A stretch of DNA of 42,312 nucleotides from Singulisphaera sp. GP187 (GTDB lineage: Bacteria; Planctomycetota; Planctomycetia; Gemmatales; Gemmataceae): positions 1 to 42,312 of the forward strand of contig CAMAUE010000031.1 in NCBI GenBank assembly GCA_945861245.1, written 5' to 3'. Position numbers and translations under genes: made by a program. Of this stretch, positions 5,598 to 9,682 are shown in pieces. How positions within the stretch are numbered: position 1 is the stretch's first letter; the number at the start of each line of letters is the position of its first letter. The notes under the pieces were generated by a model, which was given only the letters and a program-made list of their open reading frames with translations, had not been told where the DNA came from and searched no databases.

Positions 5598-6098
5598 ATG
5601 AACCTTGAGACCCTACGCACGATTGTTGCCCTGGGCGAATCCGACCAGCGAGAGTTCAAGAAGACTACCGGAGAACTCAAGGGCGGCATCGAATCCCTCT
5701 GCGCTTTCCTCAATGGCTTGGGCGGGCAAGTGTTTTTTGGCGTCACTGAAGCCGGAACAATCAGAGGACAGGTCATCTCGGATGCCACTCTCCAGGAGGT
5801 CGCCAGAGAGATTGTGAAGCTGGACCCACCGGCCACGGTGATGCAATCACGTGTCCCAGTTGAAGCGACGCGCGAAGTTCTGGTATTGGAGGTCTCGCCC
5901 GGCCCGCAGGCGCCGTACTACAATGGTCGGCCATATCGTCGCGTGACTTCAACGACCAGTCTTATGCCGCAAGCAGAATACGAACGTCGTCTCTTGGAGC
6001 GATTGGCGACAACTATTTTTCCGGTCAGCGACAATTACCGACTCGCCTTAACTCCCAGCATGCTTTTCTCGTCCAGTACGCCCTGCGCCGCTAGCTGA
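5598..6098 (+). pseudogene. AlbA_2 (Schlafen-type) ATP/DNA-binding domain protein, truncated by an inverted-repeat element
   Basis: The first 136 residues match the AlbA_2 domain found at the front of RecG-like and Schlafen-like putative DNA-binding regulators: the E-S-D-Q-R-E-F-K start, LCAFLNGLGGQVFFGV and GRPYRRVTSTT followed by MPQAEYERRLLE. Family members normally continue for 100-400 more residues. Here the last 30 codons come from a 180-bp element with terminal inverted repeats that begins at 6006, and the frame stops inside that element's central palindrome. I therefore read it as a broken gene. A short stand-alone AlbA_2 protein is possible, because the ATG at 5598 and the domain itself are intact. 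Confidence 0.72.
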
Positions 6099-6185
6099 GG
6101 GCGTACTGGACGAGAAAAGCATTGCCACGCTGCGACGACTTGCGTCATTCCGATAATTGTCGTTAGACACAAAAATAATTGTCGC
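6006..6185. mobile_element. 180-bp MITE-like element with 35-bp terminal inverted repeats
   Basis: The two ends (6006-6040 and the complement of 6151-6185) align without gaps: GCGACAAYTATTTTT, then 8 variable bases, then CGACAATTAYCG. Each end therefore contains two CGACAA copies in direct orientation at a 22-bp pitch, which is typical of recombinase binding sites. The interior holds a perfect 25-bp inverted repeat. It encodes no transposase, so it would be non-autonomous. It interrupts the AlbA_2 frame after residue 136. I did not find a clear target-site duplication. Confidence 0.7.
6060..6122. repeat. perfect 25-bp inverted repeat with 13-nt loop
   Basis: Arms 6060-6084 and 6098-6122 are exact complements (left arm begins ATGCTTTTCTCGTCC). 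The palindrome lies in the middle of the 180-bp inverted-repeat element. Transcribed, it would form a very stable hairpin. Confidence 0.85.
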
Positions 6186-6257
6186 TCATCATCCATCATC
6201 TGGCGTCCGCTGCCAGGCGGCAAGCGCGTGGTAATGAAAAAGTAGTAAGCAATCACC

Positions 6258-7586
6258 TCACACAATCACCGTCTCCTTCAACATCGGCAGCCACGCGGGA
6301 CGGCGTTTCACGGCTTCCTTGATGCGGCGGACGACATCCTCATCGGTCGGGTATGGCGACTTCAACGCAGGGCGTAAGGGCAGCGGGATTTCGTCCATGC
6401 GATAGGCGGTGCCACCTGCACTGACGCCGGTCACCGCGGTGGTGATGTGCACGCGGGCCAGTCGGCTTGTGTGCGTCACTTTTGGGTCGAGCACGATCGT
6501 CGGGACTTTCGCCAAGTGGTCGATCGCTGGCTGGGGCATCGTCGCGCCGGGGTCGGCACCGAGCACCAGGCAAGCGTCGATGTCGCCACGCACGAGCAGG
6601 TCTACCGTCGAGAACTCGCCGGGGTTGAATCGCGGATAGCCTCGGCACAGATTGACGCCGAACGGGTAGCCCGTCGTGTAGCGCAGGACAACATCGGCGC
6701 CGGTGACGTTGCCATGCCCACGCATCGGCATGGCCACGAACTTGGTGAACGCGTTCATCTCGGCGGCGAGCATGAGGATCGCGGCGGAGTTCATGTGCTT
6801 GCCACGGGTCATCGACAAACCCATGCCGAAGAAGATGACGCCGAAACGTGCCTCCTTCATCATCTTGACGAGGTCGTTAAGCTGTTCGAGTGTCAATCCG
6901 GTGTCGGCGATCGCTTCGGGGCGGATCGTCTGGTTCTTGACGAGCGCTCGCAGGGCGGTGATGACTTCGAAGTCCTTGCCCGGGCGGACTTGGAGAAACA
7001 CGTCTGCCGCTTTGCCGCTGGGTGTCTCGCGGATATCGACGAGGACCATGGTGCGGTCCTTGCGGCCATTGGGCGTGAACTTGCCTTTTTGGGTGAGCGA
7101 GTATTTGGTGAAATGGCGTGGATGGCATTCAGCCGGGTTCCCGCCCCAATAGATCATGAAGTCGGCGCGGTTCTTGACCTCGCCAAGCGTGCAGGTGACT
7201 TTACCGCCCAACTGGGCGGCGATTTCGGTTGGCCCGTGTCAGAGGGAGGTGTGGCTGTCAACCACGCCTCCGATCAGTTCGGTAAGGTGCACCGCCTCGC
7301 GCTGGGCTTCGCAGGTGACGTTGCTCAGCCCGTACACAAGCGGCATGTGGGCGTCGAGCAGGTAGTCGGCGGCGGCCTCGATGGCGTCGTCCACCGTCGC
7401 GGGATGTCCGTCGATCAGCGCGTCGGGATAGAGCCGTTCGGCGGTGTGGTTCTTGAACCAGCTTTCGCCGAGGCTGCACGCGCGTTTCGTCTCGGTGATG
7501 CGCACGCCGTCGGCATGCAGTTCGATGTCATCGCAGACACAGCCGCAGAAAGTGCAGGTGGCGTTTTTGACGATGGTAAGGGTCAT
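6258..7586 (-). CDS. fhcB: formylmethanofuran dehydrogenase subunit B, probable selenoprotein (in-frame TGA = Sec116)
   Basis: The molybdopterin subunit of the formyltransferase/hydrolase (formylmethanofuran dehydrogenase) complex, which in bacteria carries one-carbon units on tetrahydromethanopterin and methanofuran analogues. Residues 11-37 hold the [4Fe-4S] motif CTFCGCVC plus C37. The frame is then open to 6258 except for one TGA at 7239-7241 (codon 116). The context DSHTSL-TGA-HGPT matches the family position where a Cys, or in some methanogen enzymes Sec, binds Mo/W. Read through, the protein has 442 residues, the usual family length. After the TGA, homology continues at once in the same frame (HGPTEIAAQLG, VKNRADFMIYWGGNPAECHPRH, later GADPGATMP). 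A SECIS-like hairpin follows. A plain annotation would split this into 7239-7586 and 6258-7211. A recent nonsense mutation is the alternative. Confidence 0.85.
7203..7220 (-). promoter_or_regulatory. candidate bacterial SECIS stem-loop in fhcB
   Basis: In the mRNA the sequence GCCGCCC-AGUU-GGGCGGU forms a 7-pair GC-rich stem (one G-U pair) with a 4-nt loop. The loop begins 25 nt after the UGA at 7241-7239. The second loop base is G. Known bacterial SECIS elements sit within the coding region just after the UGA and need a G in the first two loop positions. Pairing below the stem is weak, so the full extent is uncertain. Confidence 0.65.
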
Positions 7587-7659: not shown

Positions 7660-8226
7660 TCACGTTGCTTTTTCAGCCTCGCGAATCATCTGCCAAATAT
7701 CGTCCAGGCCAAACCGTGTAGTCCATGATTCGATGTAGCCAATATCGAGCTTGTCACCTTGAATGCGGACCACGCCGGCGATGTCGCGAAGGTGTTTTTC
7801 CGAGCCGCCTTCGCGGTAGTAGAGCATTTTCTTGATGATGACATCCTCGGGCGAGGCAAAGGTAATCCGTTGGTCCGAAAGGCCTTCCAGGTTTCGGCCA
7901 CGCTTCCGGCGTGCTTGGTCAAACTCTGACTCCGTAAACAGGATAAAATCGATCTTCAATCCCGATGCGGGGAGCAGCACGTTAAATTGATGTTTCGTCC
8001 GAACTGCCGTTCGAACCGCTTCCTCGCTCAAATAAAACTCGCCGAGTGGAAACGCGGCACAAAACGCCGATACTTTTTCCGAAGGCAGATCAACGACGAT
8101 ATCGATATCATTCGTGAAGCGAGGTTCGCCATAGGCGATGGTGGCCGTCGATCCTGTGACGATGTAGGTGACGTTCAGTTTCTCCAGGGCCTGGCATGAA
8201 TAACGCAGAAGGTCAACATGCTCCAT
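7660..8226 (-). CDS. nucleotidyltransferase-fold protein (DUF6036/MNT-like)
   Basis: A 188-residue protein of the polymerase-beta-like nucleotidyltransferase fold. It has the G25-S-x-A start of the active-site helix, YGEPRFTND, and D40-x-D42 as metal ligands (NDIDIVVDL), then a helical tail with SPEDVIIKKMLYY. Such proteins in accessory DNA are often toxins or antitoxins that modify RNA or protein. The substrate cannot be told here. The ATG at 8226 has GGAGG 7 nt upstream and lies inside the end of the preceding gene (14-bp overlap), so the two are probably translated together. A longer start at 8286 would overlap that gene much more and add only unrelated residues. Confidence 0.8.
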   Translation of the reverse strand: MEHVDLLRYSCQALEKLNVTYIVTGSTATIAYGEPRFTNDIDIVVDLPSEKVSAFCAAFPLGEFYLSEEAVRTAVRTKHQFNVLLPASGLKIDFILFTESEFDQARRKRGRNLEGLSDQRITFASPEDVIIKKMLYYREGGSEKHLRDIAGVVRIQGDKLDIGYIESWTTRFGLDDIWQMIREAEKAT

Positions 8227-8437
8227 GAGACAACCTCCGTGCGACTTCCCGTCGAATTTGCTCCTCCGACCAGTCGCGGTGCTCACTTCTCAGAATATTC
8301 CACAAAAGAATTCGAGCCGAGCGCCACATCCCCCAGGCGATGTTAAGCCGCTCCGCTTCGGTTTTGTCGCGCAGGATGGCGGCCATTTGGCGGTCGACGA
8401 TCTCGATTGTTGGGGTTTTTGGTTGGCGGCTTAACAT
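8213..8437 (-). CDS. small protein paired with the nucleotidyltransferase
   Basis: A 74-residue soluble helical protein: ERLNIAWGMWRSARILLWN, then HRDWSEEQIRREVARRLSHG. Proteins of this type are commonly encoded directly before a DUF6036-like nucleotidyltransferase, as here, with the end overlapping the start of the next gene. It may be the partner (antitoxin-like) half of a two-gene module. That role is inferred only from the arrangement. The ATG at 8437 follows GAGG with 5-nt spacing. An upstream in-frame start at 8536 would overlap the preceding antitoxin-like gene. Confidence 0.65.
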   Translation of the reverse strand: MLSRQPKTPTIEIVDRQMAAILRDKTEAERLNIAWGMWRSARILLWNILRSEHRDWSEEQIRREVARRLSHGAC

Positions 8438-9346: not shown

Positions 9347-9682
9347 TCAAACAATCGGTTCGATTTCGACTTCCCAGCCCTTCGACGTTGGCATGCCCGT
9401 GCCATCCGTCGTTTGGCCCATGAGTTTACAAGTGGGCGGGCCGTACGGCACGAAGATCATGCCGGCGGGCAGTTTGCCTTCCTTGCACAGGAACACCGCT
9501 TCGCCCATCTCCGAGCGGACCAGCACCTGCGTGTTGTTCGCGATGCCTTCCGCCTTCATATCATCGGCATTCATCGTGATCGTCGTCACAATCGCGATAT
9601 ACTCGGCTCCGTCCTTGCCGATGTTGATGTGCTGGCCTTGCTTGGTAGTTCGGCCGGCGTTCATCGAGTAGCGTTTTTTCAT
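9347..9682 (-). CDS. fmdD: formylmethanofuran dehydrogenase subunit D-like, molybdopterin dinucleotide-binding domain
   Basis: A 111-residue protein corresponding to the C-terminal molybdopterin dinucleotide-binding domain that is a separate subunit (FwdD/FmdD) in formylmethanofuran dehydrogenases. Visible marks are MNAGRTTKQGQ at the start, MNADDMKAEGIANNTQVLV, then PAGMIFVPYGPP and the diagnostic TDGTGMP-T-KG near the end. It would complete the cofactor pocket of FhcB, encoded about 1.8 kb downstream on the same strand with a toxin/nucleotidyltransferase cassette between. The start ATG at 9682 has GGAAA 6 nt upstream. An internal ATG at residue 7 is possible. Confidence 0.82.
   Translation of the reverse strand: MKKRYSMNAGRTTKQGQHINIGKDGAEYIAIVTTITMNADDMKAEGIANNTQVLVRSEMGEAVFLCKEGKLPAGMIFVPYGPPTCKLMGQTTDGTGMPTSKGWEVEIEPIV

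What the first reader, a model, noticed from the sequence alone, without database searches (positions are those of the whole stretch)
6258..7586. FhcB read through an in-frame TGA at the active-site position: a probable bacterial selenoprotein
The sequence shows one frame from 7586 to 6258 broken only by TGA at 7239-7241 (codon 116). The flanks read TSL-TGA-HGPT and stay homologous to formylmethanofuran dehydrogenase subunit B on both sides. In the FwdB/FmdB family this residue is the Cys, or in some methanogen enzymes Sec, that binds Mo/W. The related E. coli FdhF has the same Sec-His-Gly-Pro order. A random nonsense mutation hitting exactly this codon, with no other damage in 442 codons, is unlikely. 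Automated annotation would split the gene into two fragments, and a Sec form in a planctomycete C1-transfer pathway would change how this enzyme is viewed in bacteria.
Basis: partly seen in the sequence, partly recalled or inferred. Interest (0 to 1): 0.93.

Follow-up and report, generated by a model that had tools for sequence, protein, structure and literature searches.

The report
Bacterial selenium-type formylmethanofuran dehydrogenase gene
A planctomycete gene for the formylmethanofuran dehydrogenase B subunit carries a stop codon (TGA) exactly at the metal-binding position; the same TGA is there in all 80 closest copies compared from other genomes, and it is very likely read as selenocysteine, which would make this bacterium's one-carbon metabolism depend on selenium.

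Summary
Confirmed. window:7586-6258(-) is one frame broken only by TGA at codon 116, which aligns with the metal ligand Cys118 of archaeal FwdB. In the 80 best-matching loci of other genomes the codon is TGA in 80 of 80, no other stop occurs in the aligned part, and both flanks are under purifying selection. A hairpin 25 nt after the TGA fits the published bacterial SECIS model; its Leu codon is TTG in 80 of 80 (18% elsewhere in the gene). The genome has tRNA-Sec, selA, selB and selD; tRNA-Sec was found in 69 of the 80 other genomes. It is therefore, with high confidence, a selenoprotein gene. Correction: it is a FwdB/FmdB-type subunit with [4Fe-4S] cysteines and a FwdD partner gene in the window, not the cofactor-less FhcB of methylotrophs. 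Not wholly new: Kim et al. 2016 (PMC4807772) reported a selenoprotein fmdB in one planctomycete. Added here: its breadth, the in-frame SECIS, only one fmdB found in this genome (no Cys copy), a Sec-linked Cys154, and trees that place the bacterial Sec clade inside Cys lineages, beside a Thr/Ser sister group. Selenium itself was not measured.

The parts
6258..7586 (-). fmdB (fwdB-type) gene, read through the internal TGA; ends in its own TGA
7239..7241 (-). TGA, codon 116, predicted selenocysteine, aligned with Cys118 of M. wolfei FwdB
7203..7220 (-). bSECIS-type hairpin, 7-bp stem with AGUU loop (loop at 7210-7213), 25 nt between UGA and loop
   Evidence: model limits from PMC13188914 (passages)
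7533..7556 (-). Codons 11-18 with Cys11, Cys14, Cys18, which with Cys37 (7476-7478) match the [4Fe-4S] motif of FwdB in the alignment
   Evidence: 81 of 81 conserved
7125..7127 (-). Cys154 codon, Cys in 81 of 81 Sec genes and Ser/Gly/Thr in 30 of 30 full-length non-Sec database homologues
9347..9682 (-). fmdD, partner subunit (FwdD-like, 78.7 bits to NF042908, below that model's cut-off of 175)

Best explanation
[quoted passage not shown] Inferred mechanism: SelA, with selenophosphate from SelD, makes Sec-tRNA-Sec; SelB would bind the hairpin 25 nt after the UGA and deliver it, so the ribosome passes the UGA and stops at the gene's own terminal UGA. The selenium would be the protein ligand of a Mo or W bis-pyranopterin, near His117 and His291, with a [4Fe-4S] cluster on Cys11, 14, 18 and 37. 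With FmdD, FmdA and FmdC it would interconvert a formyl-methanofuran-type carrier and CO2 at the end of the tetrahydromethanopterin C1 pathway, probably in the oxidising direction. Shown: codon, conservation, hairpin, machinery, partner genes. Inferred: Sec insertion, metal, reaction, direction.
For: 80 of 80 loci of other genomes have TGA at the site; 10 of 10 best-matching genomes in a 392-genome phylum survey, the window's included, have it too. dN/dS against 8 relatives is 0.06-0.16 before and 0.08-0.11 after the TGA. The hairpin is paired in 558 of 567 stem cells, loop AGTT in 80 of 81; Leu126 is TTG in 80 of 80 Leu codons, the top synonymous constraint of 312 columns. Of 399 other codon positions only 7 that share this hairpin reach its mean energy; the next lies at -7.8 against -12.2 kcal/mol. 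tRNA-Sec with anticodon TCA, selB, selA, selD in the genome. tRNA-Sec in 69 of 80 genomes holding the loci, in 9 of 10 TGA genomes against 5 of 35 other fmdB genomes of the survey. Partner genes FmdA, FmdC, FhcD in the genome and FmdD in the window.
Against: No protein or selenium data. tRNA-Sec was not found in 11 of the 80 genomes nor in 1 of the 10 survey genomes (G343, 62% complete). 5 of 81 genes have another minimum-energy fold and 2 (L066, L078) a G-G mismatch in the stem; synonymous recodings are as stable in 134 of 2000 draws for the window and in 19% on average over 81 genes. 7 of 19 non-Sec homologues have some hairpin of -6 or lower, one (L114) at -12.1, though none with the same geometry. 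Only one clear two-sided stem change (L073). Cofactor, metal and direction of reaction are untested.
Confidence: 0.95

Rival explanations
1. Pseudogene or sequencing error: the TGA is a nonsense mutation or a misread TGC.
For: It is a single codon in a draft assembly of 289 contigs, and the operon is broken up with an integrase and an AbiEii-like gene nearby.
Against: TGA in 80 of 80 loci of other genomes; purifying selection on both sides; no other stop.
Confidence: 0.01
2. Two real products: the UGA ends a 115-residue protein and the rest is translated from an internal start (such as TTG at 7211) as a separate 317-residue subunit, without Sec.
For: Databases hold the 3' pieces as proteins: 89 of the 120 listed hits, starting at query residues 122-144.
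Against: Those pieces are gene-caller output. The site is Cys in related intact proteins (12 of 31), the hairpin fits bSECIS, the Sec machinery is present, and the gap would remove the metal ligand and His117.
Confidence: 0.02
3. The UGA is read through as an ordinary amino acid (suppression, or UGA reassigned).
For: A read-through protein would be intact apart from residue 116.
Against: The same gene ends in UGA, and the genome has the full Sec set and a Sec-type hairpin.
Confidence: 0.01
4. A selenoprotein, but the complex works as a formyltransferase/hydrolase like Fhc of methylotrophs, and the Sec site is not catalytic in a redox step.
For: The genome has two FhcD copies, and in the Thr-type sister group His291 is lost in 6 of 11, so drift away from redox function may happen nearby.
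Against: Sec position, His117, His291 and the cluster cysteines are kept in 81 of 81 genes; keeping UGA, hairpin and machinery would be odd for a relic; 6s6y_B (FhcB) matches at only 53.8 bits.
Confidence: 0.08

Closest known systems
Selenoprotein fmdB of planctomycete P2 (Rhodopirellula, from Porphyra) and homologues in uncultured bacteria (Kim et al. 2016, PMC4807772, passages)
   Same: Bacterial FmdB with in-frame UGA in fmdD-fmdB-fmdA-fmdC order; this is the same kind.
   Different: P2 is said to hold Sec and Cys forms; only one fmdB was found here, and the gene set is broken up. Their supplement on SECIS was not read.
Archaeal FwdB/FmdB with Sec (methanogens; reviewed in PMC13188914, passages)
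   Same: Same subunit, same ligand position, Sec instead of Cys.
   Different: Archaeal SECIS elements lie mostly in the 3'UTR; here the hairpin is in the coding sequence. In my tree the presumed archaeal Sec chain (9sfi_Q, X at the site) does not group with the bacterial Sec clade.
FhcB of methylotrophs (PDB 6s6y)
   Same: Homologous subunit of a related complex with FhcA, FhcC, FhcD.
   Different: Described as a scaffold without Mo/W-bisPGD; match only 53.8 bits.
Sec formate dehydrogenases (E. coli FdhF, FdnG)
   Same: Sec as Mo ligand and in-frame bSECIS (from the literature; not compared here beyond a sequence match).
   Different: Distant: 35.8 bits to 1kqf_A, 23.1 to 1aa6_A; act on free formate.

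Membership tests
Bacterial selenoprotein | In-frame UGA, conserved across species, at a position that is Cys in homologues | tested here: met
   80 of 80 TGA; Cys in 12 of 31 full-length database homologues and 7 of 7 of the next survey group
Bacterial selenoprotein | bSECIS after the UGA (loop 3-9 nt, stem 4-16 bp, G in first two loop positions, 16-37 nt spacing) | tested here: met
   AGUU loop, 7 bp, 25 nt; limits from PMC13188914
Bacterial selenoprotein | selA, selB, selC, selD in the genome | tested here: met
   each over the curated cut-off
Bacterial selenoprotein | Selenium in the protein | not testable with these tools
   needs mass spectrometry or 75Se
FwdB/FmdB | Family model and full-length match to FwdB structures | tested here: met
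   496.6 bits to TIGR03129, cut-off 327.8; 374 to 330 bits to five FwdB-type chains
FwdB/FmdB | N-terminal [4Fe-4S] cysteines, Sec/Cys ligand position, active-site His | tested here: met
   Cys11, 14, 18, 37, UGA116, His117, His291 in 81 of 81; His291 = His290 of M. wolfei
FwdB/FmdB | FwdD, FwdA, FwdC partners | tested here: met
   FmdD in window, FmdA and FmdC on other contigs
FwdB/FmdB | Mo/W-bisPGD bound, CO2/formyl-methanofuran activity | not testable with these tools
   biochemistry needed
FhcB (methylotroph hydrolase scaffold) | Lost metal-ligand and cluster residues (no Mo/W-bisPGD) | tested here: not met
   Those residues are all kept here; cofactor content itself not measured

The most novel reading that the evidence does not exclude
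Bacteria re-invented selenium use in this enzyme. FwdB was Cys-based when it spread in bacteria; one lineage turned the metal ligand into Sec by building a bacterial SECIS inside the coding sequence, independently of archaeal Sec enzymes, and remodelled the protein around it: Gly127 (Val in most others) serves the RNA hairpin, and a new Cys154 goes with the Sec. The form spread through Planctomycetota and into lineages labelled Acidobacteria, became the only FwdB in genomes such as this one, and was swapped for Ser, Thr, Gly, Arg or Cys in related lineages, a natural series of ligand changes.
Probability: 0.5. Interest if true: 0.75.

Novelty: new member of a known kind. Interest (0 to 1): 0.58.

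Why it matters
FwdB is usually told as a methanogen enzyme: a 2020 phylogeny wrote of the absence of bacterial FwdB representatives and held Sec to be the ancestral ligand (PMC7331816, passages), and the passages I saw of a 2026 selenoproteome review name it for methanogenic archaea (PMC13188914). A broad bacterial Sec-FwdB clade with its own in-frame SECIS makes the ancestral-Sec claim testable and predicts that C1 metabolism of many planctomycetes needs selenium. It also shows a practical problem: 89 of the 120 listed database hits are pieces that start after the UGA, so reconstructions can miss or misjudge the enzyme.

Tried and rejected
Nonsense mutation, read error, split gene and general UGA recoding were considered and rejected (see rivals). 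Pfam gave no family for the read-through protein at E 0.001, so the family call rests on NCBIfam and PDB sequence matches. PF00384 finds one molybdopterin protein elsewhere in the genome, without a stop; it missed the Sec gene itself, so it is no proof that no other Sec enzyme exists, and other selenoprotein families were not searched. Survey rows with a stop outside the Sec group: the G257, G205 and G048 copies were fetched; the site is Cys, Phe and a gap, and the one stop seen in the aligned part (G205) is at its C-terminal end; G069 was not fetched. The AU test rejects the Sec rows as one exact clade (p 0.0035) because P0013, with Arg, sits among them; I read that as a loss, but P0013 is a long branch. 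The synonymous-recoding fold test gave only moderate support. A viral-contig scan with P0001 found no relative. Not done: a survey of Acidobacteriota, structure prediction, codons of the Thr/Ser proteins (proteins only are held).

Full report
What is there. The minus-strand frame 7586-6258 has 442 codons with one internal stop, TGA at codon 116 (7239-7241), and ends in its own TGA. Read through, it matches formylmethanofuran dehydrogenase subunit B (TIGR03129) at 496.6 bits, and each piece matches the same model on its own. The five closest solved chains are FwdB-type (374 to 330 bits); the methylotroph FhcB chain 6s6y_B reaches 53.8 bits. Codon 116 aligns with Cys118 and His291 with His290 of 5t5i_B, the M. 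wolfei enzyme.

Conservation of the stop. A scan of the genome collection with patterns outside the site gave 169 confirmed loci, of which the best 80 were returned. All 80 have TGA at the site in the context SHTSL*HGPTE, at 73 to 89% protein identity. No other in-frame stop occurs in the aligned parts; Cys11, 14, 18, 37, His117 and His291 are kept in 81 of 81. dN/dS against 8 near relatives is 0.06-0.16 before and 0.08-0.11 after the TGA. Most of the 80 record titles name Planctomycetota groups; six name Acidobacteria or Acidobacteriota (L043, L051, L065, L066, L078, L095), which may be transfer or wrongly labelled MAGs.

Distribution. In 392 genomes of the phylum, 45 have a relative at E 1e-20 or lower. 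Of the 30 matches fetched, the ten best, this genome included, have TGA at the site; the next seven (56 to 60% identity) have Cys; the others have Cys (2), Gly (5), Ser, Ile, Phe (1 each) or a gap (2), and one does not reach the site. tRNA-Sec is found in 224 of the 392 genomes: in 9 of the 10 TGA genomes and 5 of the 35 other fmdB genomes (my count; Fisher 2e-5, kinship not corrected). It is found in 69 of the 80 genomes that hold the loci (44 of 50; 25 of 30). Among the 31 full-length proteins in the 120 best database hits the residue is Cys 12, Thr 11, Ser 5, Gly 1, Arg 1 and Tyr 1, the last beside a gap.

Machinery. The genome (6.04 Mb, 289 contigs, 94.66% complete) has tRNA-Sec with anticodon TCA, selB (362.8 bits), selA (564.1) and selD (286.4), on four contigs. 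One fmdB match was found at E 1e-20, so no Cys copy was seen.

SECIS. From 19 to 36 nt after the TGA lies GCCGCCC-AGUU-GGGCGGU, 25 nt between UGA and loop, inside the published limits (PMC13188914, passages). In 81 genes 558 of 567 stem cells pair and the loop is AGTT in 80. Codons 123-128 are the most synonymously constrained six-codon window; Leu126 is TTG in 80 of 80 Leu codons, Gln125 CAG in 81 of 81; TTG makes up 18% of other Leu codons. Of 399 other codon positions, 7 neighbours share this hairpin; the next best mean is -7.8 against -12.2 kcal/mol, median -2.1. None of 19 non-Sec homologues has the same geometry, but 7 have some hairpin of -6 or lower and one reaches -12.1. Weaker results: 5 of 81 genes fold otherwise at minimum energy; synonymous recodings are as stable in 134 of 2000 draws for the window and in 19% on average over the 81 genes.

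Residues that go with Sec. Among positions kept in at least 97% of the 81 Sec genes, those rare in others are the UGA itself, Gly127 (80 of 81; Val in 21 of 30 non-Sec database proteins), Cys154 (81 of 81; Ser, Gly or Thr in 30 of 30, Cys in 2 of 23 survey non-Sec rows) and Ile185, which is Val in 5 of 9 survey Sec rows. Gly127 is encoded inside the hairpin, so the RNA may have set that residue. Cys154 has no explained role.

Surroundings. FmdD lies upstream on the same strand at 9347-9682, separated from fmdB by an AbiEii-like gene (7660-8286) and small frames; beyond fmdB lie a Schlafen/AlbA_2 frame and an integrase. In the window only FmdD of the four partners was found; FmdA, FmdC and two FhcD copies are on other contigs. 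Of the 80 related loci, 79 have at least one partner in their flanks; of 52 with about 3 kb or more on both sides, 52 have FmdD and 49 an FmdA match, which is a short piece in L024 and L093. So the gene belongs to a formylmethanofuran dehydrogenase set that here is broken up.

Evolution. In a careful tree with long rows left out, 28 Sec rows plus one Arg row form a clade (98/89), sister to Thr, Ser, Gly and Cys forms, inside bacterial Cys lineages. With four presumed archaeal chains as outgroup the bacterial rows group at 100/100 and the chain with X at the site stays with the archaea. This favours a separate gain of Sec in bacteria, but the outgroup is four rows, copied by hand with small errors. 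Thr forms have lost His291 in 6 of 11, Ser forms in 0 of 5.

Literature. Kim et al. [quoted passage not shown] Wells et al. 2020 (PMC7331816, passages) write of the absence of bacterial FwdB; a 2023 paper (PMC10100899, passages) counts 149 bacterial FwdB, infers transfer from archaea, describes FhcB as lacking Mo/W-bisPGD, and notes that annotation truncates Sec proteins. Listings showed me no other paper plainly on a bacterial Sec-FwdB; one search listed 30 of 54 papers, I opened six papers, by passages only, and most subscription papers are not held.

Verdict. A real selenoprotein gene, rightly spotted, misnamed FhcB, of a kind reported once before in this phylum as far as I found. Its breadth, the in-frame bSECIS, the linked residues and the apparent separate origin are the parts worth following.

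Noticed in passing
database proteins P0003, P0005, P0007-P0009, P0011, P0012, P0014, P0028, P0029, P0051, P0063, P0074, P0089, P0094, P0111: Close relatives (62-70% identity) carry Thr (11) or Ser (5) at the metal-ligand position, with the cluster cysteines kept; six of the Thr forms also lack His291.
   Followed up: partly
database protein P0001: A 75% identical protein lacks about 26 residues just at the UGA and hairpin (TSL joined to YFIVYWGG) and keeps Cys154; it may be a real deletion or an annotation join.
   Followed up: no
window 6001-6190: A 190-bp element with nested inverted repeats, outer arms 40 nt (75%) and inner arms 25 nt (100%) 13 nt apart, just downstream of fmdB and overlapping the end of the Schlafen/AlbA_2 frame; MITE-like, no second copy in the window by two patterns.
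   Followed up: partly
G000:C21:39984-40946 (L021:316-2571): selD lies in a 751-residue frame whose first half looks by eye like an NADH-dehydrogenase-type flavoprotein, a fusion; the SelD part has Cys, not Sec, at CGGCGSK.
   Followed up: partly
G000:C173:1333-2190 and G000:C12:4695-5564: Two FhcD (formyltransferase) copies, 437 and 322 bits, beside a single fmdB.
   Followed up: no
window 7660-8286: An AbiEii-type nucleotidyltransferase frame (22.6 bits, just over the cut-off) sits between fmdD and fmdB, inside what is an operon in relatives.
   Followed up: no
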